A DNA stretch of 64,000 nt, taken from the NCBI RefSeq assembly GCF_965363235.1, contig NC_134848.1:65662681-65726680 (forward strand), read 5' to 3'. The position numbers and the translations under genes are program-made. Positions within the stretch are counted from its first letter, which is position 1. Every line of letters starts with the position of its first letter. Positions 1 through 46,800 of the stretch are shown one piece after another. The notes under the pieces are model-generated. The model ran no database searches. It was not told where the DNA came from and saw only the letters and a list, made by a program, of their open reading frames with translations. The DNA comes from Mytilus galloprovincialis. Taxonomy: Eukaryota > Mollusca > Bivalvia > Mytilida > Mytilidae.

Positions 1-1022
1 TTGTAAATCATTACGTCTTAGAGTGTCAACGCTTTTAAGCAAACATTGCATATTGTTAACCATGTCATTCTCGATAAATATCCCTTTCATAAAATGTGTT
101 ACATTTTACAAATATCATATCGGCCTAATTCAAATGATGATCATTCTGCTTCCGTTAATACCCATACATCAAAACCTCATATTATTCTCAGAATAATAAT
201 AAGAAGAAATAGTAAAGTGCAATACCACAAGACAGAGCCGATAGCCGGTTTCGGGTAAAAAAAATCGAGATGCAAAGTATGTTACTGTATGAAAATTGAA
301 ACGATATCTGAACCCTTAAAAACAGATCAGAAATCATCTTTTTCATTTTGTATTTGAGAGCATAAACACGAACATATATAAATACACTTCCATAAGTTTG
401 ATTTCTATCCGATGCAGCTTTTAAGTATTATAATAATTCGAACTACTAAATTTGTTTTACTCCAGTTATAAATTGCCGCCGTCAGATTTTTCATGACTTT
501 TTTGTAGTTTCTAGTATTCAGTTCTATCAAACCACTCACTTAGTTTTAACCAAATCCCAATTATAATTATAATGAAAACGCAATGCGCTATCCCCTTTTT
601 TCAAATAATAGGCCCTTGTGTGTTTTTGATTTCAAATATTGTTCTTGAAAGCTTCTGCCAGGAGTTAACTTGATGACTGTTGTTTAGAAATGGCATTTAA
701 TAATATGATACGGCCCTATAAAGATTTAGATCTGAGAGTATAATTGGTTCATATTTTTCACATGAACTGATTTATTTTAAACATGTTAAACCATTTCATA
801 TTTAATCTTGAAAAATTGACTGATCATCTATTTCTTTCAATGTTTTATTAGTTTTATTTAATGTGTTCACTTGAATTAGATATGTTTCATGCTAAATAGA
901 TTTACATCGCCATTTATCACTGATATCGTTTTTATGCTTCTTTTAGTGGCATCAATTTGTTGTAAAATGTATGTTCCATGATATATGTAGAAATTTCATA
1001 TTTATATCTTCTCTTTTTTTAG
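1..1022. other. Upstream intron or flank of the CARD/GIMAP-like gene
   Basis: I find no supportable coding exon here. The next exon begins at 1023 with an acceptor in phase 1, so at least one earlier coding exon must exist, either left of the window or too short for me to recognise. The sequence is AT-rich and shows no inverted-repeat element. Confidence 0.4.
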
Positions 1023-4000
1023 GGAATTCTCAGAAAATAATTAAGAGCCATTTCAGTCTGGTAAAAAACTGCAATATCAAGGTTGATGAACTAAATGAAA
1101 TTGCTCGTTTGTGCAAAGCATTCACTGAAGAAGATTTTAAGTTCATTAATTGTTTACCCGCAAATATTTTGAAAATGGGCATATTCTGGAAACGACTTTT
1201 AAGGAAGGGTGAAGACAGTTGTAATTTAATCATCAAGGAACTTTCAAACAATAGTAATTTTGATTTAATCAAGACAATTACATCTGACAATGGGGACAAT
1301 GGTGAGGCTTTAAAACACACGTTTCACGTCTAGTCTGTCTCAACAGCTAGTTTCATGGTGTATTTACTTACTGCATTTTTATTACTTTTGTTACTGTTTT
1401 TTTTTTCAAAATATATATATATAACTTATTATAATTCCTGGGGTTTTTTTAAATACCAAATTAAAAAATATCTGAAATTGCAAGTTAAAAGTTTTCATAT
1501 CAGAGCAGCTAACTAGAAGAAAACGGTAACATGTATTACAAAAACAAATCATTGAAAATGACGGTTAACGGCACATCTAGACTACTTTGGCGATATATGT
1601 TTTCAACCTATAATGTGAAATAACAAAAATACCGAACTTCAAAGAAATTCCGAAATGCAAAGTCCTTTATAAAATAGAAAAAAATACAAGCTCAAACACA
1701 ACAAACTCACGGAAAACAACTGTCATATTCCTGACTTGTTTCAGGCATTTCATTGTGTGGAAAAGTGTACATTAGTGTAAACCATGTGTGAGCAAAGTTA
1801 ACAGAAATATCAAATAAAAGGTCACATATTCAGCAGTCAACATGATTGTAATATACTATTTATTACTATGGAAAAGATACAATGTCAATCAAGAAAATCA
1901 AATTGGCATACATACAAAGAATTAAGGTAATCAGAAAGACAAGAATACAAATTTTACCGTAGCACAATTACACAATGCCGGAATATATAAGTACCGAATA
2001 CAGTTTCTATATAAATTAGTGTAACGCTATCGCTTTATGCATATGGTTTATAGAGTTCTGAATGGTGAAGTTGAAATCATCCCTTCGTAAATTTTACAGA
2101 CGCCACCACGGGCTGGTTGACCGTTATGGAATAAAGGTTCCACAAATGATATCGGATATGTTCCTTACGTCGTAACTACAATCCCCTTCCCTTTCATGAA
2201 TGTGACCTACCGAATTAGAATATTTACCGGATTTATTATAACATGAGCAACATACCGGGTGCCTCATATGGAGCAGGATCTGCTTGCCCCTCTGGGGCAC
2301 CTGAGATTACCTTTAGTTTTTGGTGGGGTTCGTGTTGCTTATTCTTTAGTTTTCTATGATGTGTCATGTGTACTATTGTTTGTCCGTTTGTCCTTTTCAT
2401 TTTTAGCAATGGCGTTGTCAGTTTATTTTCGATTTATTAATTTGACTGTCCCTCTGGTATCTTTCGTCTCTCTTTTATAAAATATATCAAATACTATCAA
2501 ATTAATTACCGAGTTAAGCAACACAGTTGTTTTAGTCACAAATGTGACACAAGTGACTACCGTAGGTGGAATATGTAAAGTAATGAATAAATATAAAGGT
2601 TGAAACTTACATGACCTTAATATTTCAGTGAATTGTAATGGAAATGCATCTCATACGAACCAAGAGTTTACAAAAGAAATTTTACAACAGAATGCAATCT
2701 ATATTTGCGATGAGTTGAATTTAACTCACGGTGTTCAAGATATGTTGTTTGAGTATGACATAATAAGCATTGACGACCATGACGTCATTGATGATGTGCC
2801 GAGACGGACAGACAAAAGAACGATGTTGGTGGAACTACTTTTGAGAAAAGAAAACACTGATTGGATCCCTAAATTCATTCAAATAATGTATATCACAGGC
2901 CATACTCATGTTCTGGAATATATCCGGAGTCAGTTAAATATGGAAGAAGGTATATGGAATGATTTTTTGTACTTTAATTGAAGACAGAGGTATTAGTAAA
3001 ATAAATAATGTTGGTTGTTTTTTCACGTCATGATTTTAATCTCTTTGAATATTGTTTTATTTTCTTTATTGAAAAGTTTCTTTTTAATTTCTTTGATTTT
3101 TTATTCTCTAAACTCGAATAAAACGTAGAGTTTATCAAGTTTAAGAGAAGATGTACAATAACAATATAAATCTTAGTTTTGATTTAATCTATTTACTACT
3201 TTCACTTTCTTAAAAATATTACGACGAATGACTACGTTTTTGTTTTACTTGACGATGTATTCATTTCTTCATTTCACAAATTGCATGGTAATATTAGGAT
3301 ACAGCTTGTTACTTAACTGAAGTGTGTTGTCATCGTGTTGCAAACATGTTCCTGTAAAATCATTGTCCAAGGTCGTGCTGTCTTAGATTTTGTCGTCGTC
3401 GTTTTGCAAAATTTAAGAATAAAATTTTATTATTTCATACATAAAGTATATTAGTATATTGTTCTATACCCAATAACACTAATTGGTTGTTATACCTAGA
3501 GTAACATTTAGAATACATATATAGTTAACTACCTTAAAATCATTCCAGGAATTAATACCTTAGCGGTTTGATTTGGTATCTTTAAAGGTAACAAGCATTG
3601 CCTCCGTTAAAGCAACTGTTATTTTTTAGTTCATCTAGTTGACAATAAGATGTAAAACAACATTATTTCAGTTTTTATCGTTTCATTTAGTCAGGGGAAT
3701 TTAGCATAACAATTAGCAATTGACGATTTCCATGTAGGTTTGTATTGTTGTGAAAATATTTGCTATTGTACCTATGGTACTTGTCAAAAGACTCGAAGGT
3801 TAACGTAATTAAATCATAGCATATGAATTCAACTTTTAAATTGTAATTTTGAGAAAGTTGATCAGGTCGTAGTTCCTATTGTTTGTTTAATTCCAATTGA
3901 TGTATTTATTTATCTTTATCATTGATGAATAGCATACATCAACTAGACAAGCAGTGTATTATATTCCTATACAAAATTAATGTAGTTATATGTTTCATGA

Positions 4001-7000
4001 AAAAATTATAAAGATATCAAAGTTAAGTATGAGCAAATAATATATGGAACGTTACATTCTAATATCCGATATTAAGGGTCAATTTGAATTGTGCCCTTTC
4101 ATACTCATTATTGTAATAACTATGTTAATAGATTTTGAATTGTTGTAGAAACAATGCCGGCGCCGTTACGGATTGGTAAAACCCAACTCAGTCTTGGGAG
4201 CACATCAGTTATTCCAACCCAGACGTATTTATTTGGTCTTCAAAGTCATGCACAGGGAATAGGAAATTTCAGTGAAGTGATTGATGCAGAGGAAAGAATT
4301 CAAAGTGTTTTGCAAGAAACAATGAATACTGACGTATTAGAAATAAGAGAGGGGTCGATATATTTCCACTTGCATACATTTTCACCAGATATCATTTTGA
4401 GCATCTTAAATGGACATGCTGACGATAAGATGAAATTATGTCTCAGCAGATTATTTCAGATTAGTAGCTTAGTTGAATATTTTAAAAAGGATGCTGTGAT
4501 AGAATTTATGCTGAAAGAAATTCCTAAAGACACGTTTATAACAGATGGTAAATACTTTTTTGTAATTATGTTTTACTCATCATTGGTTTAACCATTGTAA
4601 CAAACATTTAAATTTTGTATCTACAGATAATAATGCTTTGTTAACTCATAATATAAGAGTTTCGTGTGTGGTAAATACACGCAAGACACTGTGAATTTAC
4701 GACCAAGAATTTATTTTTTTAAACAACAGACAAATAAAGTCTCACCATCTTATATCAAAATGATGCATTACTTTAATTATGTTGTAAAAAAAGATATAAA
4801 ACTAATGGTTGGGTTTCTTGCAGGAAAGAAAACAAAGCATAGCGAAAAGAAAATGGCAAAAGAGTTGTGCACAGGTTTGTGTATTTAAGTGTAGCTGAAC
4901 AAAAGAAATTCAATTTAGACTTTGAATCAATGACAAATCTCAATTTGAGTGCATGATACAGCAACATCTTTGTTTTCCTTTACAATTTTGCCTGCTTATA
5001 GGTTGTATGTTAATGATGCAAAAGAGGGACGAACGATACCAGAGGGACAGTCAAACTCATAAATCGAAAATAAACTGACAACGCAACGGCTAAAAATGAA
5101 ATGGACAAACAGACAAACAATAGTACACATGACACAACATAGAAAACTAAAGATCAAGCAACACGAACCTTGCCAAAAACTAAGGGTGCTAGGGATCACA
5201 TGTGCTCCGGAAGTGTAAGCAGATCCTGCTCCACATGTGGCACCCGTCGTGTTGCTTATGTAATAACAAATCCGGTAAATATTCTAATTCGGTAGGTCAC
5301 ATTCATGAAAAGGAAGAGGAATGTAGTTACGACGTAAGGAACATATATGATAACAATTGTGAAACGATTATTCCATAACGGTCAACTAACTCATGATAGC
5401 GTCTGTAAAATTTACGAAGGGATGATTTCAACTTCACCATTTGAAAGCAACATTGTAAAACAGCATGATCATAAAGTATAACGTCAGACTCATGTGTCGT
5501 TAACATGAAACTGATTAGCGCCGCCCAAATAATAAAGTTTGAAGGCCAACCAAATTTTAGAGCATTGCATATGTTTTACAAATACGGCTTATGACTTGGA
5601 GTATAAACATTTATTGTTTTAAATTATTCCAAACTAAAAAATAGAAATTTATTTCAAGATATTCTCCGTTCAAATGTATTCAGTAAAATACAGTGTTGCA
5701 TATATTTCAAATATATGGCATTATTTCAATAACAGTTATCAAAGGTACCAGGATTATAATTTAATACGCCAGACGCGCGTTTCGTCTACATAAGATTCAT
5801 CAGTGATGCTCATATCAAAATATTTATAAAGCTACAATGTTGAAGAGCATTGAGTATCCAAAATTCCAAAATGTTGTGCCAAATACGGATTAGGTAATCT
5901 CTATGCCTGGGATAAGAAAATATTTAGTTTTTCGCAAAATTCAAAGTTTTGTAAACAGGAAATTTATCAAAAAGACCACATTATTGATATTCATGTCAAT
6001 AAAGTACGAAGTATAAATTCATAAAACAAAATCGTTTGTAGAGATTATCAATAACATTATTGATTTCCATAGGACTCCAGACTCCTTTTATTAAAGCCCA
6101 AGTCACACTAAACCACGATCGAACTACGCTCACCGCGATCTAAAATAAATTCAGATCGTGGTGAGATTGCAATATGATCGGCATGAAAATGTAAGTTTTT
6201 GTTTCAATCACGTTTCTATTACGTCCTCATAACGCCTCTACAACGATCCCGCTACGATTAGACCACGTTCTCACCACGTTTATTCTGCGACCTCACTACG
6301 ATCATCACGATTTATCTACGCTCATTACGTCCTCACTACGATCATACCATGATTTATCCGATTGCAAAACGTGCTTACCGTGCTTCTACTGCGATAAAGT
6401 CATAATCTTACCACGACCATACTACGATCATACCACGTTCATACCGCGATCTTACTACGCTCCCAGAAATAACGATCGTGTTCCATATAAATACTGTATC
6501 ATTCCTTCTATTTCTCACTGATATGTAGAGTTCTCGGAAACAACCCAGACATGCAGACAAAATCTACGTGAGGGTAAGGGTAGAGGTAGAGGCAGACGCA
6601 AAAGGCGGTCTGATAGTAAAGAATCATGATCCAAAAGATATATATCGGACCGACCAATCCAACTTGAATCACAACTGTTTGCTGGTCCATCAAGATAAAA
6701 TAACGATGCTTTTGTGAACGATTGTATGGATGGCACAGATGTGTCAAGAATGATTGAGCCGTTGGAGATAAAAGTCAAGAGGTCCAAATCATATACAGAC
6801 AAACAAAAACTGGAGGGCTTTTATAAATTGTATATGACAATGACAATGTCCTTACTGCGATCTGCTCGATTGCACTACGATCGTCAAAATTTTCGTTTTA
6901 TCCTAGAGCCTAGAAGGACTACGGTATTACAAACAATTGCAAACACTGCATGATTAATAAGATATTTGTTTTAATACTTTTAGAAAAAAAAAATTTCCAA

Positions 7001-10000
7001 ATATATTATCAAAAGTTTATGAGTGTACGAAATATAAATTTGAAAATGCTATTTTGTTAACAAATATATTTGTAAAAATGGCAATATGTGGTCAAATATG
7101 TTGAATTCGACTTAATTGAACTAAACAATCAATATTATATCAATTAACAAATAAACTCAATTCAGTATTCCTTAAATATTCAAAACAACTACAATGTAAA
7201 GAAACATATACAACAAAAAGATAACACATCTAAGACGAAATGGACCTCTGTTTTTCTCCATAATAATAATTTGTTCATACGTTTGCATTATGTTTTTTTT
7301 GTCTAAATCAAAATTATAATTGGCATTATTTTTACAGCCTGCTACCAAACAACCATAAGACAAAATCGTGAAACAATTATTGGTGAAATAGAGGACGACA
7401 TCATTGAGGACACGTTGAATGAAGTGAAAGAATTGAGAAGAAATACTATGCTTAAATCTACAGAGTGTTTTAGTGGGTACAAGTCAAGACGACGAAAAGC
7501 TATTGCGTTTTTGCAGTATGTGGTTTGTAACGAAGACGTACTTTTGGCTTTTGAAAAGGCCTTTACCTTTCGATCCCAGGTCCACATGGACATCGTCAAT
7601 TGTAGAAAATGCGAGGATGGGAATGGTAAGCCAATGACAATGATAAATATTTATAATTTGTTTTTCTTAACAAAGATTGTGTTCAGTGTATTCGTAGGAG
7701 AGGCAAACGTTTCACACTTTGTGTCCGCTGTTGAAATCACATCACGTTCATCTTGTATACTTTTACGATGATATTGATAATGCAATTTATCATTACACAC
7801 GTGTTGTTTTTTTAAACACTTGTCTATTATAGTAACTTAAACAGTAGTATGTGTTTTGTTGTTTTAAGATGTTTTTATTCATACTACCCTGTATTAACTT
7901 TATTAAAAACGAGATCTAAAATATCACTACGTACGCTCAAAGTATTTGCTTACTATAGTTAGGGTGTTTTGATCAGGGTATTACGTGCTTGATATAAATT
8001 TTAACTTCTTTCCTTCAATTTTATTTTACTTTTTTAGAGTAGATCATAAATTAGCATTGTTAGGAATAAGGTTTAAAATGCTGTATTTGTCTTTAGAACA
8101 TAATCGTAATTTCGATAAAACAATGTATCTCATTAACTATTAATGTTGAAATTTACTTACATTGGTCTGAAGTGTATCGTAGCAAAGCATAATTCTGAGA
8201 TCATCAAACTTCTTTTCCTAGGTGCCATTTTGCAAATACCTGAACTGAGGAGTAGAAAATGTTATTTCACAGTATCATTGGATGAAATTGGTAAGGTTTA
8301 AAATGATATATTTCATTTAACTGTATGTCATACTAGCTTGAAACTCTAAAAAATATTTAGCGTATAAGTTAGTTTACGTGAACAGATTACATAGACTCGT
8401 CAGTGTACTCGACACACAGTTCGACGGTTCCATTAATTACTATAATTGAAGAACATTCCGAAGTAAAATTCAATAATATTTTGTTAATTTTGTTCTATGT
8501 ACATGATGGATAAACTTCAACGTAAAAAAAATCGATTATAAATATTTCGGCCGGAGTTTCACTAACTATCAGTTTAAAACGTTCAACAAATGGCGTATCA
8601 CAAAAAGGCTCTAAATTTATCAATAATACTATGCTTATCATTAAGAGTATCAGACACTCGTTTACTTTACACCAGACTTATCAGTAGCATTCAACTTTGA
8701 AAAGTTCAATGGCCAATTAATTTCAAAACTTATAAACATGGGATTAAACAGATAATTTCTCAAATCGGTTAAACTTTTTAGCTTAGTATTAAGTTTATCA
8801 TCTGATTTACCTGCTTTGTTATATTTTAGGCACAGTTTGTATAAATGATGTAACAAAAAATGTCCGCTTACCCTCGCATGTATTTAGGAATTTATCAGAT
8901 CAACAAAGTATTCAGAGGTAAAATATAATTGGTTATTTTGTTGGGTTTGTTTCTCTTTACCACAATATAGTTTTAAACAACAAACAACATTTTCGAGATA
9001 TGTTTTATGAAATTGACGGTAACTTAACTTCATATTAAAATATGGAATGTATAATGCATAACATGTTTTAGTCAATGTCGATTATATATTGTAAGCTCTT
9101 TATATATTGGCAGAAGACTCAAAATCGGTTATTAAAATAAAAAAAAACGATAAGCTGACAATCGAATGTCAAACATGTGAAAACAACAAAAAAAGAACCA
9201 AAATCTACCAAACACACTATAACAAGCTTGTATCTGAGCAACAGGGAACACAAACAATAATCGATGGTGTACACATGTACATCGGAAGATCTAGTAGATG
9301 TGACATCCGTCGTTATTTTGTTTTAAATATGATAATTAACAAAGTGTTCATCTCAACCCTAGGTCTTCAAACTTATACACAATATGCTAGACATGATTAC
9401 CTTAGCAAATATGTTCAACAAAGGTTTTGAAGGGTTTAATTCTGCTCAGTCTTTAGCTTTCTAAGGAGTTTTTTTTTGTAATTTTTTATGTCTGTTCGAA
9501 ACGTTGTCTTGGCCATAATGTTATCTATCGGTTCGACTCAGGAATCTCTTATACTTGTGTATGGTGGTTGTAGCTGTTGCCTGCAATTTTACGATAAAGT
9601 AGGCAAAGTATAGCAACATGTTTCTGTTCTATAAATATTTCATGTACCGAGGATTTCAGGTAAATAATTAAATATATAGAACAAGGTTCTAAAAAGGAAA
9701 ATGATTGAAACCCCGAATCAAGTTTAATTGGCTGAACGGTATGATTTTGTTCATTGTTAAAAGCCTTACGAGTAACTGCAGTTGATTAAATCTTCGGAAA
9801 AGTTCAGTCAAAGAGTATGCGTTCGCCACATGTAAAAAGTGAAATCACAAAAATACTGAACTTAAAGAAAATCAATTCGGAAAGTCCATAATCACATGGC
9901 AAAATTAAATAACAAAACACATAAAAAACGAATGGACAAGAATTGTTATATTCCTGACTTGGTACAGGCATTTTCAAATGTAGTAAATGGTGGATTAAAC

Positions 10001-12230
10001 CTGGTTTTATAGCGCTAACCCTCTCACTTTGATGACAGTCTCATCAAATTCCTATATATTTACATTGATGCGTTAACTAAACAGACACAATAAATAAAAT
10101 AGTCAAAATATGGGTACATCAGTCATCATCGTATAACAATTTTAAAAGGAACAATTTAACAGAACACAAACACATCTATCTACAAACACATTCATTTATT
10201 TGTGTGTCTGACGTCAGAAATTTCTAATTTGTCGTTCAATGTGCATACAAACAATTTTAAAATTTACATAGGCAATGTTAGCATATAGGGTTAAAAAATC
10301 AAAAGTATGTAAAAATAAATTTCAGAAATTGACCGAGATTGAAAATAGTCCGAAAGTTATATATAGAATTTATAAGAATCCACAAATAGTTAATTCCACT
10401 ACGCGATTGAATGATTTTGACGTTCATGGTTCAACGTATTTTGTAATTCATAATAGAAATATATCATAATGACATAAAATTAAACAATATCATACTGACG
10501 GGATCTTTTAAAGTACAGAGTCACGTTATAAGAACTGCAGTAGTTCGTATATTCGATTATAATTTGGATCCGTCAGACGCATTAGATATGCTATGAGGTA
10601 CCGGTCATTCGTGGATAACATCAATCAGACACCATTACGTTGAGTTTCTGCCCAAAAGTAACGCCATTTGTTGCATGAATTGTATACCGCTGGTAATGAG
10701 TCATCAATCAAAACACTGAAGTGCAACAAAAAACAAACGAAAATGCAACATACATAGAAGCAAACTTTTAGATAACAACTACCATATTCCTGAACTGGAA
10801 AAAGACCTTTTAAGAAAAAATCGTGGGTTTAAAGAGGAAATATCCTCATAAAATAGAACGTAATTGAGATGAATGTTAGCACATGTACAGTTCACCAAAT
10901 TGATATAGATTAGTAGTCGTTGATAATCTTGTTAGCTGGAAAATTTGAATTCATGTACAGGTTGATGCGATTCTATATGGAAAAACATCTCGGTTAAAAT
11001 GAAATCTCATATTTCTTTTAGAAAACTTATTAGGACCATGACAATGAGTGAATTTACGCCTTTCAAAGGTAAATTTACTTAGTCTACTTTTTTAATACAA
11101 TTACAACAGATGAATTTAATTCTTTTTAATCATAAATGATAACTAATCATCGATACAAACAATATCTATTCTTTGCATAATTTTAAGCATTGGAACTTAC
11201 GCCTTTTTCAGTGAAAAGGTGTTGTCATGATGTCCATAAATTTCAAAATTATTCAAATTATCATATAATTTGTTATCGAATTCTTTATGATTTATCAGTT
11301 TTGACGATTTTGAAAAAATGATATGATCATACAAATATAGAACTTTGTTAATATCTTACAGTCTTTGAAGAGTACCGACTAATCGTTATGGACGAAACAA
11401 CGGAGCCGGATAAAATAAGTGTTCTTGACGCCATGAAGTTTTGTATAGGACATATAGTACGCTTTTACATGCTTCCTCGTTTTAAGAAAAATACTAATAA
11501 CGAAGAGGGCGACAAAAGGACAATAGCACGTTGTGTTGCTCTTACTTCCCCAGGCCCACATGCGTTTGTGCTAATAACAGATGTCTTGAAGCTTGAAGTC
11601 TTAGAATCAACATTAAGGCCATATAGAGAATATTTTGGTTCAGATTTAATGAAGTATCTTGCAGTCATGTTTATAAAAAGTGAACCGTTCAGATTCGCAC
11701 CCGAAGAATACATTGAAAGTTCGCTTCTACTTCGCCGACTTTTTAAAGATGGTCACGATGGGTCCAGATGTATTATTTTTGACACCGCGGCATCAGAAGA
11801 CCGCAAATATGGACAAGTAAAATGTTTTGTGAAAATGATTGAAGACATGTTCAGACAAAACCAAGGCCAATACTTTAGCAACCAAATATTTGAAGAATCA
11901 GAAAGAGCCATTCAGATAGAAACACAAAAAAAGGAAAATGAAAAACGATTGACTATTCGGCATTATGAGGACGAAAAACAGAAGATAATTAAGCAATTTG
12001 AAGATGAAAAAAAGAAATTTGAAGATGAAAAAAAGAAATTTGAGGGAGAAATACAAAAACTCATTAAACGATTGGGCAAAATTGAAGACGAGAAACGACA
12101 AAAGATAAGGCAAGTTGATGACAAAAGTAAACAACTGAAGCAAAGTAATTCTAGGTCAGAAGCTGCAGAACAAGTCATGTCACAACATCATATTGATGCA
12201 TTACTTTCAAAACAGCGGTTTATACTTTGA
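1023..12230 (+). CDS. Multi-CARD protein with C-terminal AIG1/GIMAP-like domain (5' partial)
   Basis: I join these exons: 1023-1301, 2629-2949, 4149-4547, 4824-4874, 7338-7625, 8222-8290, 9114-9266 and 11362-12230, which ends in TGA. All have AG acceptors and GT donors, all introns are phase 1, and the reading frame stays open for about 809 residues. Residues about 1-93, 104-200 and 355-440 look like CARD death folds; clear stretches are MLFEYDIISIDDHDVIDDV in the second and IRQNRETIIGEIEDDIIEDT in the third. Residues about 220-333 form a domain I cannot name. From about residue 521 the protein resembles AIG1/GIMAP GTPases: the family box between G3 and G4 is seen as ARCVALTSPGPHAF. No G1 P-loop is visible, and G3 reads IVMDETTE instead of a DTPG-type motif, so GTP binding is doubtful. 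Residues about 697-794 are a Lys/Glu-rich coiled coil. CARDs recruit partners by homotypic contacts and GIMAPs act in lymphocyte survival and defence, so an innate-immunity role is an inference. The model could instead be two genes, with a GIMAP-like gene starting at ATG 11038 (coding exon 11038-11068, phase-compatible with 11362). The exons are firm; the joins rest on splice signals only. Confidence 0.68.
1590..1990 (+). repeat. Interspersed repeat family B, copy 1
   Basis: The landmarks CTGTCATATTCCTGACTTG and CAGGCATTT are shared with copies at 9835-10230, 16565-17055 and 51330-51445, and more weakly at 10715-10830. The family is AT-rich and carries no coding capacity. It resembles a repeat I know from Mytilus transcripts. 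Confidence 0.65.
2065..2482 (+). repeat. Interspersed repeat family A, copy 1
   Basis: About 415 bases here match, in inverted orientation, the copy at 5005-5450. Shared landmarks are CCGGATTTATTATAAC / TAATAACAAATCCGG, TCCGTTTGTCCTTTTCATTT, and the end TGACTGTCCCTCTGGTATC. From memory this is an abundant Mytilus interspersed repeat. It lies in the first intron of the CARD/GIMAP-like gene, and the short open frame across it is not a gene. Confidence 0.8.
5005..5450 (-). repeat. Interspersed repeat family A, copy 2 (inverted)
   Basis: This is the reverse-oriented partner of the copy at 2065-2482. It reads GATACCAGAGGGACAGTCAA at its left and GTAAAATTTACGAAGGGATG near its right. The two copies face each other across about 2.5 kb that contains two coding exons. 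Confidence 0.8.
5745..5935 (+). repeat. Interspersed repeat family C, copy 1
   Basis: The segment contains CGCCAGACGCGCGTTTCGTC followed by CATCAGTGATGCTCATATC. Degenerate copies in the other orientation lie at 12845-12965 and near 15825-15910, where the corresponding text is GAGCGTTCCTGATGAAAG. It is a common short repeat of mussels, from memory, and sits in an intron of the CARD/GIMAP-like gene. Confidence 0.65.
6094..6900 (+). repeat. Degenerate CTACGATCATAC-type tandem repeat and flanks
   Basis: Positions about 6110-6475 are built from a very degenerate 10-12 base motif of the type ACTACGATCATACC, with variants such as ACCACGTTCATACC and ACTGCGATC. Two more motif pieces occur near 6855-6885. 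Between them lies a GGTAGAGG-type purine-rich stretch that would translate to an Arg/Gly-rich peptide. The open frames here have no acceptor/donor fit to the surrounding gene, so I treat the block as a repetitive element in the intron between exons 4824-4874 and 7338-7625. Confidence 0.5.
9835..10230 (+). repeat. Interspersed repeat family B, copy 2
   Basis: It contains TTGTTATATTCCTGACTTGG, then TACAGGCATTTTC, then TTAAACCTGGTTTTATAGC, matching the copy at 16565-17055. It lies in the last intron of the CARD/GIMAP-like gene. A shorter, more diverged relative follows at 10715-10830. Confidence 0.65.
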
Positions 12231-25822: not shown

Positions 25823-28800
25823 TTAACAACCACATGCTTGACTGTTGTCATTGGTTGAATCGTCATTTGGCACAACTCTAGATGTAGTATCAGCTTTAGC
25901 TTCAGATTCTTCAACTTGTTTCTTGAAAATATCTATCAACAAAAAGTATTTTACATTGTATATTAATGTGTATGAGCATTGATAAGATTAAATAAAGAAC
26001 CTTAGTGAGCACGCTCACATACCCCATGTCCCCACATTGTCATCTGAGAAATTAAATTAGTGCAAGAAAAAAATTTGTATAAGAAAAAACATTCAATAAT
26101 ATTTTTTCTCTCAATATGCACATCAACATAGTATGTCCTTATTATCTACAAAATTTCATGAAATTCTGTTGTGTAGTTTCAGAGGAGTTGCGATGACAAA
26201 CTGTTGCAGTAGTAAATTTAAAGTAAATAAGTTCAAAGCGGCATAACTCCTAGAAAAAAATGAATCTTAATTTCCTGTCTATAGGCACATCTACATATTA
26301 TGTCCTTATTATCTAAAAAGGTTTCGTGAAATTTTGTTGTGTGGTTTGAGAGGAGTAGCGATGACAAGAAACAGGACTGACTGACTCACTGACGGACTGA
26401 CGAGTCAAAAACATTATACTCTCTGCAACTTCGTTGCATGGGGTATATTTGTAAATATAAAGTCATAATTCTAAAATATTTCTTTAATGGTCAAATGACA
26501 CATAAATGATAACTAATGTTTACTCTTGTTTTTTGAGAACATATAATGTTTTTCAATTACAGTCAAAATTTCAAATCCTTCTTTCCAATTACAGAACCAA
26601 TATAATATCATAGAATTTTTTTTTAATTCTCTCTCATCTTGGATCAACATGAAATATTTGACTCTGGATATATCATACAATCAATCTTGCAAAAAGTTAA
26701 ATGCATGTAATCTTGAATGTGTCAAGATATTTCACCTACATGAGATGATTAGGAACACCATCCAGGATGTTTTTAACCTCCCTGTTACTGTATGTAGAAT
26801 GTATAGCACACATTTTTCACTTAAATGTTCTGGACATCTATCACACTGAAATTCAATTGAAATCAACCTAAACAAAATGGTAGAAGTAGAAATGTTCTGG
26901 ACATCTATCACACTGAAATTCAATAGAAATCAATCTAAACAAAATGGTAGAAGTAGAAATGTTCTGGACATCTATCACACTGAAATTCAATAGAAATCGA
27001 CCTAAACAAAATGGTAGAAGTAGAAATGTTCTGGACATCTATCACACTGAAATTCAATTGAAATCAACCTAAACAAAATGGTAGAAGTAGAAATGTTCTG
27101 GACATCTATCACACTGAAATTCAATTGAAATCAACCTAAACAAAATGGTAGAAGTAGAAATGTTCTGGACATCTATCACACTGAAATTCAATTGAAATCA
27201 ACCTAAACAAAATGGTAGAAGTAGAAATGTTCTGGACATCTATCACACTGAAATTCAATTGAAATCAACCTAAACAAAATGGTAGAAGTAGAAATGTTCT
27301 TGACATCTATCACACTGAAATTCAATTGAAATCAACCTAAACAAAATGGTAGAAGTAGAAATGTTCTGGACATCTATACACTGAAATTCAACTGAAATCA
27401 ACCTAAACAAAATGGTAGAAGTAGAAATGTTCTGGACATCTATCACACTGAAATTCAATAGAAATCAACCTAAACAAAATGGTAGAAGTAGAAATGTTCT
27501 GGACATCTATCACACTGAAATTCAATTGAAATCAACCTAAACAAAATGGTAGAAGTAGAAATGTTCTGGACATCTATCACACTGAAATTCAATTGAAATC
27601 AACCTAAACAAAATGGTAGAAGTAGAAATGTTCTGGACATCTATCACACTGAAATTCAATTGAAATCAACCTAAACAAAATGGTAGAAGTAGAAATGTTC
27701 TGGACATCTATCACACTGAAATTCAATAGAAATCAACCTAAACAAAATGGTAGAAGTAGAAATGTTCTGGACATCTATCACACTGAAATTCAATTGAAAT
27801 CAACCTAAACAAAATGGTAGAAGTAGAAATGTTCTGGACATCTATCACACTGAAATTCAATTGAAATCAACCTAAACAAAATGGTAGAAGTAGAAATGTT
27901 CTGGACATCTATCACACTGAAATTCAATAGAAATCAACCTAAACAAAATGGTAGAAGTAGAAATGTTCTGGACATCTATCACACTGAAATTCAATTGAAA
28001 TCAACCTAAACAAAATGGTAGAAGTAGAAATGTTCTGGACATCTATCACACTGAAATTCAATAGAAATCAACCTAAACAAAATGGTAGAAGTAGAAATGT
28101 TCTGGACATCTATCACACTGAAATTCAATAGAAATCAACCTAAACAAAATGGTAGAAGTAGAAATGTTCTGGACATCTATCACACTGAAATTCAATTGAA
28201 ATCAATCTAAACAAAATGGTAGAAGTAGAAATGTTCTGGACATCTATCACACTGAAATTCAATTGAAATCAACCTAAACAAAATTTTAAGTATTAAAGTT
28301 AATGAAGTGCAAATGTTTGTCACTGTTTCAGATTTAGAGAATTGTCAAAATGAAATGCAATTATTTTTTTTTTTTTTTTTTTTTTTTCACGTAATAATAT
28401 CTTTATTGCATATTTGCTGTAACAATTTACTTTTTTTTAGTCATGGGCATCAATGCAAAACTTTCCTACAGTGGACACATGATCAAGGGTTAAACAACAT
28501 GCTCTTACAGCAATGGATAAACATGTAAGAAGTTAAGTAATAAATAACTTACCAATTAAAAGGTTGTTAAATGCCTCACCAACATTTGATGAATCTAAAG
28601 CTGACGTTTCAATAAATGAAAAATGTCTTTCATCTGAATTAAAAAAAGGAAAAACAAATATTATTGGCTGAAAGTGAGTGTATAAATTAGTACAGTATAT
28701 TTATTTCCATATTTTATGTACTTCTTTTAATAACTATGTTGTATGCACTGAGTTATTATCATTTTGTAAAATACTCTTCACCCTTAAAAGGAATATTATG

Positions 28801-31800: not shown

Positions 31801-34800
31801 TGTCTCACCGAAAGTTGAGGCCGACGCCTATGGAAACTAGCTATAGCAAGCTATAGCAAACTTTCCAAAAAATAAAAGAAAGAGAATTCCAGTTGTCCCC
31901 CTTTGAGTAGTAAAAAAAAGATGAGAAATTAAAAGTATTCCTTTTTTGCAGGACCATATTTTTTACATTTATATGCCTTGAACTTCTAAAGAGTTAACTT
32001 CTACTAAAAATTTGTGCTACCCTATGCTTTACTTTAAGTCTTCCTGAGAAATTAATTTGTCCCAATGTAACAGTTTTTTACAAGTAAAATTCCAAAGTTG
32101 TGTCTCTATGAGATGAAAATTATTATCTTAAAAACAGATATAATAAGGAGCAGTATACCTGCAAAAGCTCTGCCTTCCTCATGTGTGACTGTTCTTTGTT
32201 CACGTAAGTCGGTTTTGTTACCCACTATAATAACACAAACATTAGGATCAGCATGCTGCTGTAATTCACTCAGCCATTTCTGTAGATTCTCAAACGTGTG
32301 TCTCTTTGTAATATCATAAACTACTAAAGCACCAACAGCTTGTCTATAATAGCTGAAAATGTTACATGAAAACAAATCGTATAATAAATTTCAAATTAGT
32401 AAAATGTTTTTATTATTGCAAACAATGCCACAGAATATGAATTGCCAAAAATTGACATTTGGATAGTATTACTTGAATGTATAGCAATTATTCTGAATTC
32501 AAAATAATCAAATATTGTATTTTGGTACATTGTTTTAATATATAACAATACATGCACATAAACAAATTTGATTTCCAGTATTTAAATACAACCCAAAGCT
32601 TGTATATAATCAAATTAAACAAGAATGTGTCCAAAGTACACGGATGCCCCACTTGCACTATTATTTTCCATGTTCAATGGACCGTGAAATTGGGTAAAAA
32701 ATCTAATTTGGCATTAAAATTAGAAAAATCATACCATAGGAAACATGTGTACTAAGTTTCAAGTTGATTGGACTTCAACTTCATCAAAATCCACCTTGAC
32801 CAAAAACTTTACCCTGAAACTCGCACTTTCATTTTCTATGTTCATTGGACCGTGAAATTGGGGTCAAAAGTCCAATTTGGCTTTAAAATTAAAAAGATCA
32901 TATCATAAGCAACATGTGGACTAAGTTTCAAGTTGATTTGACCTCAGCTTCATCAAAAACTACCTTGACCAAAAACTTTAACCTAAAGCGGGACAGACAG
33001 ATGAACGAACAGAAAATAAATGGAGAATTTGTTCATGGGAATTTTTCAACTAATGTTTCAGAAAAGGGAGAAAGTTTGGTAACATTAAAACGTTTAATCC
33101 TGCTGCAAAAGTTTGCACCTGTCCTAAGTGAGGAATCTGATTACAGTAGTTGTTGTCTGTTTATGTTGTTCATACACATTTCTCGTTTCTTGTTTTTATA
33201 TAGATTAGACCATTGGTTTTTTCTGTTTGAATGGTTTTACACTAATAATTTTAAGGGCCCTTTATAGCTTGCTGTTTAGTGTGAGCCAAGGCTCCGTGTT
33301 GAAGGCCATACCTTGACCTATAATGGTTTACTTTTATAAATTGTAACTTGGAGAGTTGTCTCATTGGCACTTATACCACATGTTCCTATATCTATTGTAA
33401 GCAGACTTTGACTAAATAAACCATATTACACAAATTAGAGAATCTACAGTAGTTGTTTATGTCTTTTAACTTTTGTGGACTGTAACTAGTTGTCTATGGC
33501 AATCAAGCATATATCTTCATATTTATAAAGTTACTCGTTATTTTTTACCATTATCATGATTAAATACCTATCATAGCTATACTTACACACTAGTAATTGC
33601 CCTATATCTTTCCTGACCAGCAGTATCCCAAATCTGAGCCCGAATTGTCTTGCCTTTAATAACCATATTTCTGAAAGAAAAACATTTTTATTATGTTTGA
33701 ATTAAACGTGCCCACATCTAACTTATTCTTCGATAAAGGTTTTAAATAATATTCAGAGATAAAAGGACCAGTCTTAACCGTTGGCCACTAGTCCGATGCC
33801 CCAGGTAAATATTGATTCGGACTAGTGAAAATTTTATATAGTCACATAGGTACAAGTTTTTATATTTAGTTTCCATACTTCTAGATGAAAAAGTTTTTGG
33901 TGCAGACTAAAGGACCAGGATTTTTGTGTTTACAATATGAGGTCTTCCTTTGCACAATGAACATGAAATGTCAGGTGTTAATAATAATCACTCTCAAGAA
34001 AGAAAGACTCATGACCTTTGCATTATTTAAGGTTCAACTTTGGAATAAAGAGGTCATTAATCTGGGACCACCATCAATTTACTTAATATTAATTTTCTCC
34101 TTTCAGAGTATGGACTATTTAAACTATAAAATGTCAGATTGCTTACCGGTATGCTTGAAAATCATAAATATATTCTGTATTTATATAACTGTAATGTTAG
34201 ATGCTTCAGATCAAATTAAAACCCTTCATATTTATTTTTAAATCTTTGAAAATCTATGCTCAACCTAGCCTAATTATTATTTAGGTCCTTAAGATTAAAT
34301 CTAACAAAGTTTGTCTAGGTTGTTTGAAACAAATACACAAGGCATAGAACATAGAACATGTAGATAGGACAAAGTGTGAAAAAATAAAATTTGAGGGAAA
34401 TCTTTGTTTTAAAATTCTTTAAGAGTATTTTATATTGGTTAAATTTAACAATGATAAATAAAAGAATTTTTATGTATTGATCTAAAAAAAATTATTTTTA
34501 CCTCAAATGTTAATTATTTTAAGTATGTAATTTTTGAAGTTTAGTTAAACTTCAGGTTAAATTTCCAGTAACTCTTTTCACTTTTGGATTGTAACTGACT
34601 TACACATGTTTTTTTGTACCAATAAAGTTTACCTTGTAGAGAATTCCACGCCAATAGTTGTTTTACTTTCAGCATCAAATTCATTCCTAGTGTATCTAGA
34701 TAACAGGTTGGTTTTCCCTACTCCAGAATCTCCTATCAGTACAACTGTAATATCATTTGGAAATATCATTTTAAAACAATTTTTAACTACGGTTATCTAT

Positions 34801-40277: not shown

Positions 40278-40812
40278 TGCATCGATGTAAAAGGCGTCCC
40301 AGAAAAAAATTGGAAGGCAAACCAGAAACAAATGAAAAAAGCCTTGCCAGATGTCATAATTATTTGGACTACTCTACTAATTTGCTAGCCCTTTAGCATC
40401 ACAGAAAAAATATAAAATAGCCTTTCAATAAGTCATATTTATCATTGTTTATCATGTTTATTGAGAGTCGAGACAAAATATATATTAGCTGTGACCTGTG
40501 TCGGATAGAAACAGACCTTATACAAATCAACATGAAAAATTAGACTGAAAATTTAGGACTGTTTGCAAATTGGATTGTTAATCAAATGCCACAAAATGGA
40601 CAAACTTCATCTTTTATTTTATTGTATTTTGTATATATGTATATATTATAATTATAATGTACATAAATATTTTTTGTAGGTTTTTTAGTCACTACAGCAT
40701 TAAGTTGGAAGTAATGTACATGTTACATGTGTGGAGTAACAATCTGCAACAGCAGGATATATTGTGATCTAGCATGTGTTGTCTAGTACTATTTATTTTA
40801 TAAATAAAGAAT

Positions 40813-43800
40813 ATGGACATGATGAAGATTTATCAAACTACCTACAGTATGTACAGGGCCCTAAGGCTACAATTTATAAGATTGTCATCCAATTCTACCA
40901 GTTGTCATAGCTACATTAGAGAAACAGACACTGCATCTGATAAACACACATTAAACTTGCAGAACATTTCTGTGGAGAGTTATTTCAATCATCAAAACAG
41001 AAGGAGAATACTAAAGGGACATAACTCTTGTGCATGTTGTGGAAAATATATTCAAAGACGACACTGCAGTAGTTTTGTGAATGGAAAGAATCAAGATGGT
41101 CCCTGTTCGTCACCTCCATGGAAAATATTGTTTTTTGGAACTGACCATTTCTCTCTATTTACCTTAAAATGCTTAAATGAGAATAGGTAATACTTTTGTA
41201 CTATTTGTGTCTATATCAACTTTAATGACTTTAAATTCATCATTCATACTACATGTATTTCAATTAAGTCTCATTAGTGTGGATTGTAACTATGTTCCTG
41301 AACCATTGCAGCTGATTTCCTAATGCTTGCAATGTAAAATTTTGGTTGGCTTGCTTGCTTTGTTTGAATAATTGTTTATACAAGCTTTGTAAATAAGATT
41401 GACATCTTTAAGCATTATATATAGGCATAGTTTAACCTGTAGATATAATATTTGAATTTAATTGGGTGTTATCCTAATGATTGTAAAATATAAAAACAAA
41501 GCAAGCAAGCTAATTTAAGTTTTGTTCTACATGCATTAGGAAATTAGCTGTAACAACAATGTTTGATAACCAGGTAAGTAAATGTGATATTATTTTGCAT
41601 GTTTTGTAATTAGAACCATCTCATCCATTTTTTCATCCAAAAATTTTATCTAGAAATAAAAAAAATAATCATAACCTCAAAATGCATATATCATGTATAT
41701 AGTTGTCTCATTTGCAATCATCATGATCATACCACATCTCCTTATTTTTGTAATTTATTTACCTAGACATGTGTATTTGTTTGTTTGTTTCAATAAATTT
41801 ATTTAACTTTATAAATCTTCTTTACAGATTACAAGATAAAGACAGTGTTGTTGAAAGTTTAGAAGTTGTAACTGGCAAAGAAAAAGTAAGACCATGTACT
41901 ATATATACCATGCTAGCTTTAAATTTCTGTACATGCTTTTAGTAAAGTAAACAAAATCTGGGATTTATATGTCTGTATAACCAAATAATGAATCTATGCT
42001 GCACAACAAATACGGTTTAATGTCTTGACAGATTCTCATCAAATTTGTAATAATGTGTTGACATGGTTGAGGGATAATTTGGAGGTATTTCTAAAAAAAA
42101 AAACATTATCCTGATTATAGGTTAAAGTACGGCCTTCAGCACAGAGCCTTGAGTTACACCAAACAGCAAGCTATAGAGGGCCAAACATGCTAAAATTTCT
42201 AGTGTAATACAACCCAAACAGGAAAACCATTGATCTAATCATTATATAAAAAAACGAGAATTGAGAAACACTTATGATCCACATCAACAGACCACATTCA
42301 CTGAACAACAGGTTCTTGACTTAGGACAGGTGCAAACAAATGCAGCAGGTTTAAATGTTTTTAAAAGGCGCAAACCTTCACCCTAACCTGAAACAGTAGT
42401 ATAACATCAAACATAAAAAAGACAAACCATTTCAATTGATACTTAAGGGCATACGATACAGTAGAGATCCCTCGTTGATTTTTTCCTAAAATTTTGATAG
42501 TTGGTAAATTTTAAAGTGTACTTTCCAAATATGAAAAGAAAAAAGTACCTTCATGACTTACTTTTTGAGATAATTTGGTTCTAAATTTGCATATTTGGAA
42601 GAAAATTCCCGAAAATTCATAAATAATGACTTTTAAAGAAAGTAACAATACTTTTGAACAAAAAGTCATAACTTAACCGGGTTTTTTGTAAAACGTTCCC
42701 TTGATCCATGGCAGCTACATGCTGGAACAAGTTTAAGGTTAAACCAAATTATGATTTTCCGGATTTAGATTGATATATGCGAAATGAAGAAATTGACCAT
42801 ATTTTTGCATCTTTTCGGAAGTGCAGAAAAAAAAATGATCGTTGATTTTTTCTTGAAATTTTGGGGGAGTGTTCTTGAAACAGTACTTGATTGATTGCAA
42901 AAGAAAAAAATATGGGTCCATGTGCTTGTTTTTTCAATAAAAGCCATATACCTTAAATTTTTACGACGTCTGTCAGTATGGCGCTATATTACGTTATATA
43001 AAGTTTTAATCGCACCAACGTCGTGTAATCATTCCCGCCGTACACGAATACGCTGTCAAGTATATGAAGGTGTTTTCCAAAGCGTTGATACTTATCATAA
43101 AAGTTCATAAGATGGTTATTCATAAAATCGCTAAACATTTGTGATAAACATGAGGCTAAGCATTTACGAAACGGAATTTGGACAGGAACCTTTTCATAAT
43201 AAAAAAAAGGATATAAAAAAGGATCCCAGCAGATTACTTTGTCAGATGTACGGCAAAACAGAAAAATCTTATAGAAGTATACAGGTGCAGCTTCGTCCGA
43301 CATAAGTTTTAAATTACTTCATGTACCGAAAGAGGATAGCCAACATTATTGCAAAGGCCCTAACATGGCAAAATGTGAACCAACTATAAATTAAGTGAGG
43401 TGATACCATTAATTAACAACCGTATAACCTTCAACAATGACCAAACCTGTCAGCTTTAAAAGGCCCCGACGTACTTGGATTTTTTTTCTTTTTACATTAA
43501 AAAAATAATCATCTTTCAAATTTAGATTATAAGGAGTACTTCTTGTTCTATAGTTTGAGCTGTTTTGTGCAATTTCATGTCATAATTGCCTCAGTCGACT
43601 GAAAATGAAGTTGTAGTATAACATTTCATAGGAAGTACAGCAGCTAGTATATTAGAGAATAATAGTCAAGGATGTCTTTATCGATAGATAAGTTGCATTA
43701 CCTTTCATACGGCGTAACTGTGTGAATATAGCGTACTTGTATGTCTATAAGTAGAGCTATATTGAAAACACTTTATTTGTTCTTCTGTCCGATGGTGTAA

Positions 43801-46800
43801 CTATAATTGTGTTACTTTTCTCAGAAACAACGCTACTGCATGACTTCATAATTGCTCATCAGCTTGACAGCGACGAGTTTTAACGTGTGTACACTTTTTG
43901 ATCTGTCTGTCTGTCTGCAATTAGTGTACATTTGTCGATACTTCAATTTATATCTCTCGATACATTGAAGTACAAAAGGGTGATGCTTATACAAATAAGA
44001 AGACGTGGTATGATTACCAATGAGGCAAATCGCAACCAGAGTTCAAATGACAAAGACGTAAACGACTATAGGACATCGGACGGCCTTCAACAATGTTTAA
44101 GGCTCACACCAAACAGCAAGCTATAAAGGGCCCTAAAAATTACTAGTGTAAAACCATTCAAACGGGAAAACCAACGGTCCAATCTATATAAAATCTATAC
44201 TCATAATTAGCTATTGCAGCTTTTGTCATGTTTGTGCTGATGTCAAAAATAGCAGGTTCTTTTGTTCCGTAATGTGTCTTATTTGTTAAAATGTTTTTCA
44301 GCATGTTACAGTTTAAGCAACGAATAGTAGGATAGCTCCGAAATCCTTGCAATTTTTCTTTCTCTTGTACGTTGAGCAGATTCTGTTTGGCCGTACAGTT
44401 TTGGCAGTTATTCAGTGCTTTTGACAGACTAAAAAGCTCCACAATTTTTCTTCCGTCTTTCCATTTTATGCTGTCAGAACTCTCTTCTGTGTCTTTTACC
44501 TTTTCTTTTCAATTCGTCATGCAAAGTTGTATTTGATTTATTTTTGTTCATTTTCAGTATTTCCTTTGATCTCACTGCTCTTCGGCGGATTTCGCCGTCT
44601 TTTAGAAACAACATGGCCGCATACTTAATCAAAATGAAATATTAACAAAAACAAGTAAACATATACCATGTACACGGCAGTGAATGAACAATTTAATCTA
44701 TGAGACACTATAAATACAATATGTAAAATAATGTCAAAAAGACAACTATATGACTATAACCTTAGACAAAATGCTTTATAAAACTGCATCTAAAAAAAAA
44801 TAAAAAAAGATAGATATGGTGTATTTATTCAGGTACTATACCAGTTCTTATTATGAAAAATTAAGAAATAATTCATGGAAGCCATAGATTGTTGGATATT
44901 GACACATGGCCTGGGCCGTTATATTTGAATTTTATCCTGAGCGTTAGCGAGGGATAAAATTAACAAATATCACGGCCCATGTGTAAATTTCCAACAATAT
45001 ATGGCTTCCATGAATTATTTCGATTCTAATAGGACAAAAACGGTCATTAAAAAACTGAAGCAAGGGTGGGTATGCTGTGTGTGTGGCTGTTCTTTTTTAC
45101 TCCCTGTTAGATAAAGCTCAAATTTCTTTATAAATATGTAGCTTGCGTAGGTTATTTCGTGAATAACTGCTAGAAAAGAAAAGAAAAAATAATTCTTCAA
45201 TTCTCAAACACAACATTTGCCATTTTTAATTTACATGTTTTTCTCGAAAGCTTCTGTCAAATCCAAAGTTGACATTTTGTAACTAAAGAGCCGCCATGTT
45301 GACCTGCTGAAATGAGTAAATATGCGAATAATGCAATTGAAAAGAAAATAAAACAAAACCTACCTAAAAAATCAGTTTTAATACAATATCACATACGAAT
45401 TCCGATGGTTCACATAACAGAAAACTTTCAACTTTAGCGGTTTCATTTGTATGACGTCATGTTTTGAAATGACTTAAATGCGCCAAAAAGATTAATAGAC
45501 TTTCGCAGAATTTTATTTAATTTTTATTTTGTTGATTTCTACGAGCTCTTGTGCATTACTTCTTTTTATTATGCATACAAATGTAGATTTACATGGGAAG
45601 TATATTGTAACAGCCATTATTATGCATATCTCTGAGTCTGCGCTAAGTATATTTTATCGAGAATTTTATCACAGTGTTGTTTACAAAGTTAAAGAAGCAT
45701 TTCATATTAGAATTCATCATTAAATATGTAAAGTGGCGTAAACAGTAACATTTTGTGATACACAATTTCTACTTTTTCACATATTTAAGAAATCTGTAAG
45801 ACGTTATGCTGAGCAAGCAGGATTAGAAGTTCATAATTGGCCACTGGTTGTACCTGATGGTAAATATGATGTTGGAGTATTGGTGTCATTTGGAAGCTTA
45901 ATCCCCGAAAAAGTTATAAATAGCTTTCCATAGTAGGTAGAAACTAGTTTTATGCAACAAGTTCAAATATATAGCAAATGTTATGAGACAAATACTGAAG
46001 ATTCAAACAATGGAAAAAAAATCTCTGAAATTGAATGCTGATGTGTGTTTACATTTTTAGTCTCCCTCTATTATCACAATTTTTGCCCTATTAAAATATT
46101 TTTAATGCTAAATTCTGCAATAGATATAAAAGTTCAACCAAAGACAGCAAATCATGAGTTTTAAGTAAGTATTCTATATTCATACTCCATCAATAGGCTA
46201 AATATCAAAAAAAATGTTGTACGGGTATGGATAGAAAATCCCATATTGACAGAAACAAGTGCCTGTGGAACATGTGGAATGAATAGAAGATTATTTTTCT
46301 GTTTTAATTGATATAAAAAAAATTTGAATATCTATTTGTTGTATTAAATAACTTGTTGTTTTATTTCAGTGGTATATTAAATGTTCATCCAAGTTTACTA
46401 CCAAGATGGAGGGGAGCCTCACCACTTGTTCATACCATACTAAACGGAGACAAAGAGACAGGGATATCTATAATGGAAATTAGACCCAAACAGTAAGTAC
46501 GACTATTGTTATGTTATTATATCCCTGCTCCAAAAAGGAAGCTATAGAGGTTTGTGTCTGTCCCTTTAATAGTCTCAACATCTTTCCATTAAAACTTGTG
46601 TCATTTGTTCAGAAGCAACAGAGCTTCATGAACTTTGAAATCAAGTAACTGAAACATGTGAGCATGCAAAACCTTGTGCTGGGTTTACTTCACTTCCTGT
46701 TTAGGGTTATTTTGTTAAAACATACATGGTACCCAGGGAAGGTACTTTGAAAATGGGGTAACCACCTATAGAAGCAAATTTAAATTTCACTTACATTTTT

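What the first reader, a model, noticed from the sequence alone, without database searches (positions are those of the whole stretch)
1023..12230. Three CARD-like domains plus an AIG1/GIMAP-like domain in one putative gene
Exons encoding CARD-like folds are joined by uniform phase-1 splicing to an exon with the GIMAP family box (ARCVALTSPGPHAF) and a coiled coil. Vertebrate GIMAPs have no CARDs to my knowledge. A CARD-GIMAP protein would couple death-fold signalling with a GIMAP-type membrane or scaffold module, a possible invertebrate immune architecture.
Basis: partly seen in the sequence, partly recalled or inferred. Interest (0 to 1): 0.78.

Follow-up and report, generated by a model that had tools for sequence, protein, structure and literature searches.

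The report
Mussel CARD cassette beside crippled GIMAP
In a mussel-like genome, a string of death-signalling (CARD-type) exons lies just upstream of an immune GTPase-like (GIMAP) exon that lacks the GTP-binding motif; they may form one unusual immune protein, but similar fusions are already known in a snail and in lancelets and only RNA data can show that these two pieces are really joined.

Summary
The exons exist. Seven consecutive candidate exons (1023-9266) are open, flanked by AG/GT and phase 1 at both ends; an AIG1 (GIMAP) exon follows at 11362-12230. One CARD is significant (2629-2949), one weak (1023-1301), and a third domain (7338-7625) is CARD-like by profile comparison only. That domain has seven relatives in the genome, with the same splice phases at 6 of 6 examined; 2 of 6 have an HSPA12-like ATPase downstream, and 0 of 7 an AIG1 row within 100 kb in a capped list. 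The AIG1 match covers only profile 66-210 of 212, without P-loop or DxxG. The join 9266 to 11362 is unproven: its donor is the weakest of the set, an ATG exon candidate lies at 11038, phase 1 is the usual GIMAP junction (18 of 21), and such an adjacency arises in 309 of 2000 rotations. CARD+AIG1 is already published in Biomphalaria and lancelets. Verdict: real exons, interpretation partly supported, new variant of a known kind. The more original lead is a CARD + CARD-like cassette in front of different NTPase-type modules.

The parts
1023..1301 (+). exon 1, weak CARD (CARD1), phase 1-1
   Evidence: Pfam CARD E 0.0067, below cut-off; local CARD profile E 0.00034 among six exons but 0.29 over ORFs of 84 kb; donor 99.7th and acceptor 99.6th percentile of background sites, codon score not significant (0.146); no relative in the genome at E <= 1
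2629..2949 (+). exon 2, CARD (CARD2), with a weaker CARD_2 match
   Evidence: Pfam CARD E 5.9e-6, over cut-off; CARD_2 E 8.2e-4, under cut-off; nearest paralogue 33% at C5:44982141; acceptor only 77th percentile
4149..4547 (+). exon 3, unassigned exon, possible divergent TRADD-N
   Evidence: no Pfam or PDB hit; no relative in the genome; first hhalign test at shuffle level; a post hoc 3-sequence TRADD-N profile was matched as well by 3 of 2000 shuffles and ranks this exon first among ORFs of 84 kb, but at E 0.31; model too poor to use, pLDDT 38.7; acceptor only 71st percentile, codon score 0.068
4824..4874 (+). exon 4, short basic linker, phase 1-1
   Evidence: codon score 0.015, donor 97th and acceptor 99th percentile
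7338..7625 (+). exon 5, CARD-like domain of a family found at 8 loci of this genome
   Evidence: 7 other loci at E 1.3e-6 to 0.2; best acceptor and donor near the exon ends are phase 1 at 6 of 6 other loci examined; profile-profile to CARD probability 61%; codon score 0.004
8222..8290 (+). exon 6, candidate short exon, phase 1-1
   Evidence: donor and acceptor in the upper 1.5% of background sites, codon score not significant (0.256); no tblastn match at E <= 0.05 at six paralogous loci
9114..9266 (+). exon 7, candidate exon; donor weak, open on to a stop at 9428-9430
   Evidence: codon score 0.013, donor only 82.5th percentile; no tblastn match at E <= 0.05 at six paralogous loci
11038..11068 (+). 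possible first coding exon of a separate or alternative GIMAP transcript (ATG at 11038; further in-frame ATG at 10999)
   Evidence: ATG, open, phase-1 donor GTAAAT; a candidate of this kind occurs in 25% of 2.1-kb background stretches; codon score 0.171
11362..12230 (+). terminal exon: GIMAP-like (AIG1) domain without P-loop, Glu/Lys-rich tail, stop at 12228-12230
   Evidence: Pfam AIG1 E 6e-19, profile 66-210 of 212; best-scoring genome paralogue 31%; no P-loop or D[TS]PG pattern on this strand in the window

Best explanation
A mussel-like innate-immune adaptor locus built by phase-1 exon shuffling. A CARD/CARD-like exon cassette (exons 2 and 5 shown, exon 1 probable), which at two other loci of the genome precedes HSPA12-like ATPase exons, sits here in front of a GIMAP exon that shows no GTP-binding motif. 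Most likely at least some transcripts splice exon 7 (9266) to 11362 and give a CARD - CARD - exon 3 - CARD-like - dead-GIMAP - coiled-coil protein, while an internal ATG exon (11038) could give a short GIMAP-only form, as published for snail gene Bg8770. Proposed action: the tail and the nucleotide-free GIMAP module cluster the protein, perhaps on membranes or with active GIMAPs of the same cluster, and the CARDs nucleate death-fold signalling. Shown: open frames, splice phases, CARD2, incomplete AIG1, the exon-5 family. Inferred: the join, expression, clustering and signalling.
For: An 808-aa open frame through eight exons in phase 1. CARD and AIG1 by Pfam. Exon 5 is a symmetrical phase-1 exon at 6 of 6 other loci examined, with a CARD exon upstream on the same strand within 60 kb at 4 of 7 other loci and an HSPA12-like exon downstream at 2 of 6, so the cassette can precede a further module. 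No HSPA12-like exon was found in the window by tblastn, which leaves GIMAP as the only downstream module recognised by the profiles I ran. Precedents: Bg8770 with DD-CARD+AIG1+coiled-coil and AIG1+coiled-coil splice forms, lancelet CARD+AIG1.
Against: Donor at 9266 is the weakest of eight (82.5th percentile). A possible ATG exon stands just upstream of the GIMAP exon. Phase 1 at 11362 is the usual GIMAP junction (18 of 21), so it is no mark of fusion. No other exon-5 locus has an AIG1 row within 100 kb (0 of 7, among 150 scored rows). The adjacency is not improbable (309 of 2000 rotations), and the window lies in a GIMAP cluster (26 AIG1 rows in C11 64.1-66.0 Mb, the window's included). Exons 6 and 7 have no match at six paralogous loci, and 4 of 6 of these show no HSPA12-like exon in the DNA fetched.
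Confidence: 0.48

Rival explanations
1. Two adjacent genes: a CARD adaptor (exons 1-7, perhaps ending at the stop 9428-9430 or in other exons) and an independent, divergent GIMAP gene with its own ATG exon at 10999/11038, brought together by chance within a GIMAP cluster.
For: ATG exon candidate with phase-1 donor; GIMAP exons here normally follow a phase-1 intron (18 of 21); weak donor at 9266; GIMAP cluster; rotation test 309 of 2000; 0 of 7 other exon-5 loci have an AIG1 row within 100 kb.
Against: The ATG exon candidate occurs by chance in 25% of background stretches; the read-through after 9266 has no coding signal (0.312); by analogy with C5 and C8 the cassette could be expected to carry a C-terminal module.
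Confidence: 0.42
2. The locus is partly or wholly decaying: a CARD gene that lost a C-terminal module beside a GIMAP relic that lost its G1-G3 motifs.
For: AIG1 match starts at profile 66; no P-loop or D[TS]PG pattern on this strand of the window; exon 1 has no codon signal and two acceptors are weak; best-scoring paralogue only 31%.
Against: No stop in any exon over 808 aa; the GIMAP exon has a strong codon signal (though the training set was rich in GIMAP exons); splice sites of exons 1, 4, 5 and 6 score high.
Confidence: 0.1

Closest known systems
Biomphalaria glabrata Bg8770 (DD-CARD + AIG1 + coiled coil; other splice forms) - PMC7053062, passages read
   Same: CARD N-terminal to AIG1 and coiled coil in a mollusc; a short AIG1+coiled-coil form from the same gene
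   Different: Bg8770 is given among genes with complete AIG1 domains; here G1-G3 are not found, more N-terminal exons are present, and the join is unproven
Lancelet CARD+AIG1(+HINT) proteins - PMC12373286, passages read
   Same: CARD N-terminal to AIG1
   Different: AIG1 incomplete here; extra CARD-like exon; different phylum; no HINT seen in the terminal exon by Pfam
GIMAP7, GIMAP1 and GIMAP2 of solved structures (3zjc, 3v70, 2xto)
   Same: conserved box and C-terminal half of the G domain align
   Different: the part of the query that would hold P-loop and DxxG does not align (match starts at query residue 56 or 59)
'Partial AIG' genes of B. glabrata (PMC7053062, passages read)
   Same: AIG1 domain missing G1 or other motifs
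   Different: not described with CARDs in the passages I read
CARD - exon-5 - HSPA12-like loci at C5:44.98 and C8:25.57 Mb of the same genome
   Same: CARD exon plus CARD-like exon 5 in the same order and strand, exon 5 in the same phase
   Different: followed by HSPA12-like exons, not GIMAP; one gene is not proven there either

Membership tests
CARD (PF00619) | profile match over curated cut-off | tested here: met
   exon 2: E 5.9e-6, 26.6 bits vs 23.9. Not met by exon 1, 16.9 bits, nor by exon 5, no hit
CARD (PF00619) | six-helix death fold | tested here: inconclusive
   exon 5 single-sequence model helical but pLDDT 48.7; exons 1 and 2 not modelled
GIMAP/AIG1 (PF04548) | profile match over cut-off, conserved box | tested here: met
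   68.6 bits vs 27; ARCVALTSPGPHAF present
GIMAP/AIG1 (PF04548) | G1 P-loop GxxxxGK[S/T] and G3 DxxG | tested here: not met
   match starts at profile 66; patterns absent on the + strand of the window; the 51 residues before the match align with GIMAP N-termini no better than shuffles (308 of 1000 as good)
GIMAP (AIG1 + coiled coil) | coiled coil after AIG1 | tested here: inconclusive
   Glu/Lys-rich C-terminal stretch with a 21-bp repeat; no coiled-coil predictor was run
TRADD-N (PF20694) | profile match over cut-off | tested here: not met
   exon 3 has no Pfam hit listed up to E 10 and is not among the 5 rows of the genome search
TRADD-N | Gly/tiny-Ser turn between beta2 and beta3 (PMC8195603, passage) | tested here: inconclusive
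   REGSIYFHL present; post hoc profile matched as well by 3 of 2000 shuffles
CARD-AIG1 fusion (Bg8770-like) | one transcript encoding both | not testable with these tools
   no RNA data; frame-compatible only

The most novel reading that the evidence does not exclude
Mussels hold a modular system in which a CARD plus a CARD-like phase-1 exon cassette (a domain without a Pfam name) is shuffled in front of different NTPase-type modules, an HSPA12-like ATPase at two loci and a nucleotide-dead GIMAP here, with the dead GIMAP acting as a CARD-clustering scaffold that recruits active GIMAPs.
Probability: 0.3. Interest if true: 0.66.

Novelty: new variant of a known kind. Interest (0 to 1): 0.42.

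Why it matters
Bivalves rely on innate immunity (established knowledge), and this genome holds large sets of CARD and AIG1 exons (150 scored of 365 candidates, and 150 scored of 214). How these parts are recombined bears directly on how invertebrate immunity diversifies. A CARD protein ending in a GIMAP module that cannot bind GTP would separate scaffold from switch functions of GIMAPs, which is testable, and the exon-5 family gives a marker for tracing such shuffling across mussels.

Tried and rejected
TRADD-N for exon 3: Pfam negative; the first hhalign test was at shuffle level, with a profile that held a doubtful member, L047. A cleaned three-sequence profile gave 3 of 2000, but I picked the three sequences after seeing a likeness and one of them (L050) is itself under the Pfam cut-off, so it stays a lead. 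RIG-I regulatory domain for exons 5-7: considered from the CRKC string (recall), not supported. A P-loop exon upstream of 11362: none by pattern. The 51 N-terminal residues of the GIMAP exon as a decayed G1-G3 region: fits by position and splice site, not by score (308 of 1000 shuffles as good). More CARDs or exon-5 copies in the 20 kb upstream or elsewhere in the window: only CARD-profile rows at E 0.077 and 0.45, not convincing. Relatives of the GIMAP exon and of exon 2 in viral contigs: none. One plasmid search with the exon-2 DNA: no match. Structure models of exons 3 and 5 were too poor (pLDDT 38.7 and 48.7), so no fold search was run. One search scored exon 4 and the read-through of exon 7 in a wrong frame; one search replaces it. 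One search used ends one base off for exons 3 and 6, and its list of exon candidates used too strict a threshold; one search replaces its site scores. The HSPA12 name is recalled from its motifs; by Pfam there are only weak HSP70/ASKHA hits (HSP70 E 0.11 for the C5 exon; E 0.0011, under cut-off, for a related locus at C6), and no PDB hit at E <= 0.01 for the latter.

Full report
What is there. The window is C11:65662681-65726680 of a 1.38-Gb eukaryote assembly. The thirteen of contigs C1-C14 whose length I saw are 73 to 133 Mb, which agrees with the 14 chromosomes of a Mytilus-like mussel (recalled; the assembly is unnamed). Reading the DNA I find seven consecutive candidate exons, 1023-1301, 2629-2949, 4149-4547, 4824-4874, 7338-7625, 8222-8290 and 9114-9266. 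Each is bounded by AG and GT, divisible by three and phase 1 at both ends, followed by a terminal exon 11362-12230. Joined they read 808 aa with no stop.

Domains. Exon 2 is a CARD over Pfam's cut-off. Exon 1 is a weak CARD (E 0.0067; E 0.29 with a local profile over ORFs of 84 kb). The terminal exon is AIG1 (E 6e-19; GIMAP7 in the PDB E 8.9e-17). The AIG1 match begins at profile position 66 of 212, so G1, G2 and G3 are not found; on the + strand no P-loop or D[TS]PG pattern occurs in the window. Of 150 scored AIG1 rows in the genome, 9, the window's included, start after profile position 20 by my reading of the table, and two of these have the missing part in a neighbouring row. Exon 3 has no family, no relative in the genome and only a post hoc likeness to TRADD-N.

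Coding and splice signals. The fraction of background open stretches scoring as high is 0.027, 0.015, 0.004 and 0.013 for exons 2, 4, 5 and 7, and 0.017 and 0.000 for the first 46 codons and the rest of the GIMAP exon. It is 0.068 for exon 3 and not significant for exons 1 and 6 (0.146, 0.256). The training set was small and made of GIMAP, CARD, exon-5-family and HSPA12-like exons, so it leans towards such proteins. Splice scores use an approximate recalled consensus. Exons 1, 4, 5 and 6 have strong sites; the acceptors of exons 2 and 3 (77th and 71st percentile) and the donor of exon 7 (82.5th) are weak.

A family for exon 5. A protein search of the own genome with exon 5 gives seven other loci, E 1.3e-6 to 0.2. 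In 6 of 6 of these whose flanking DNA I fetched, the best-scoring acceptor and donor near the exon ends are phase 1; the seventh (C5:19.47 Mb) was not fetched downstream. A CARD exon lies upstream on the same strand within 60 kb at 4 of 7: C5:44.98, C9:37.57, C8:25.57 and, 21 kb away, C1:45.90 Mb. HSPA12-like ATPase exons lie downstream at C5:44.98 and C8:25.57; none was found on the same strand in 9.1-9.6 kb downstream at the other four (C5:19.50 Mb has one weak opposite-strand match, E 0.041). None of the seven has an AIG1 row within 100 kb among the 150 scored rows, and the window's GIMAP exon has no tblastn match at E <= 0.05 in the six fetched stretches. Profile against profile, the family resembles CARD (probability 61%); the best PDB hit is not significant (E 0.31). 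So there is a reusable CARD plus CARD-like cassette, and the window copy is the only one for which I see a GIMAP behind it.

One gene or two. For one gene: an open frame in a compatible phase, a cassette that at two loci precedes an ATPase-type module, no HSPA12-like exon found in the window, and published CARD-AIG1 genes. For two genes: the donor at 9266 is the weakest of eight. A possible ATG exon 11038-11068 (or from 10999) splices in phase 1 to 11362, although such candidates occur in 25% of 2.1-kb background stretches. If exon 7 were spliced to the acceptor at 11021 the frame would stop after six residues. Of 23 other GIMAP loci examined (four duplicates and the window copy left out of 28), one had no P-loop and one no acceptor; of the remaining 21, 18 have a phase-1 acceptor before the P-loop, two phase 0 and one phase 2. 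The phase at 11362 is therefore the common GIMAP junction. Rotating the 150 AIG1 rows along the contigs against 156 CARD positions gives at least one same-strand CARD-AIG1 pair within 9 kb in 309 of 2000 runs, mean 0.22, against one observed. That one is the window's own CARD, which was not among the 150 scored Pfam CARD rows and entered the list through my exon search. I put one gene at about 0.48 and two genes at 0.42. Both can be true if the ATG exon is an alternative start, as with the Bg8770 splice forms.

Comparison with print. In Biomphalaria glabrata, Bg8770 has DD-CARD + AIG1 + coiled-coil, AIG1 + coiled-coil and DD-CARD + ARM + AIG1 + coiled-coil forms, and partial AIG genes lacking G1 or other motifs are reported (PMC7053062, passages). 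Lancelets have CARD + AIG1 + HINT (PMC12373286, passages). Bivalve expansions of TRADD-N proteins are described in PMC8195603 (passages). My searches for GIMAP+CARD+bivalve, GIMAP+CARD+mussel+domain architecture, GIMAP+Mytilus, AIG1+death domain+mollusc, AIG1+CARD+TRADD, TRADD-N+GIMAP, HSPA12+CARD+bivalve and a set of GIMAP P-loop terms listed no paper whose title or abstract start describes this mussel architecture or the CARD-exon 5-HSPA12 order. I opened passages of three of the listed papers; the rest I saw only in the listings.

Mechanism. If joined, the protein would be an adaptor: CARDs for homotypic signalling, a GIMAP half that should not bind GTP but keeps the conserved box and C-terminal part, and a charged, probably coiled-coil tail for clustering. 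That is inference from families and is untested.

Noticed in passing
L062 1373-6534; L064 1411-9927; C8:25587050-25587667: CARD plus exon-5-like exons followed on the same strand by HSPA12-like ATPase exons at C5:44.98 and C8:25.57 Mb, a possible CARD-HSPA12 gene family.
   Followed up: partly
G000 C11:64.1-66.0 Mb: Dense GIMAP cluster, 26 AIG1 rows in 1.9 Mb, several with in-frame stops.
   Followed up: partly
window 26823-28284: Tandem array of a 67-bp unit, 21.8 copies, 98% matches.
   Followed up: no
window 34632-34796 (-): Exon of a Ras/Rab-type GTPase with intact P-loop (Pfam Ras E 1.7e-11).
   Followed up: partly
window 44161-44508 (-): Fragment like a Mutator-type transposase (Pfam E 2.7e-5, 23.7 bits, under the cut-off of 26.5).
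   Followed up: no
window 40804-41187 (+): Open frame that by recall looks like the start of a mitochondrial methionyl-tRNA formyltransferase; Pfam gave no support.
   Followed up: no
L066 (C1:45.89 Mb), minus strand: Open frame about 8.4 kb downstream of an exon-5-like exon that by recall resembles a DZIP3-type HEPN domain; my Pfam request for it failed on a wrong frame.
   Followed up: no
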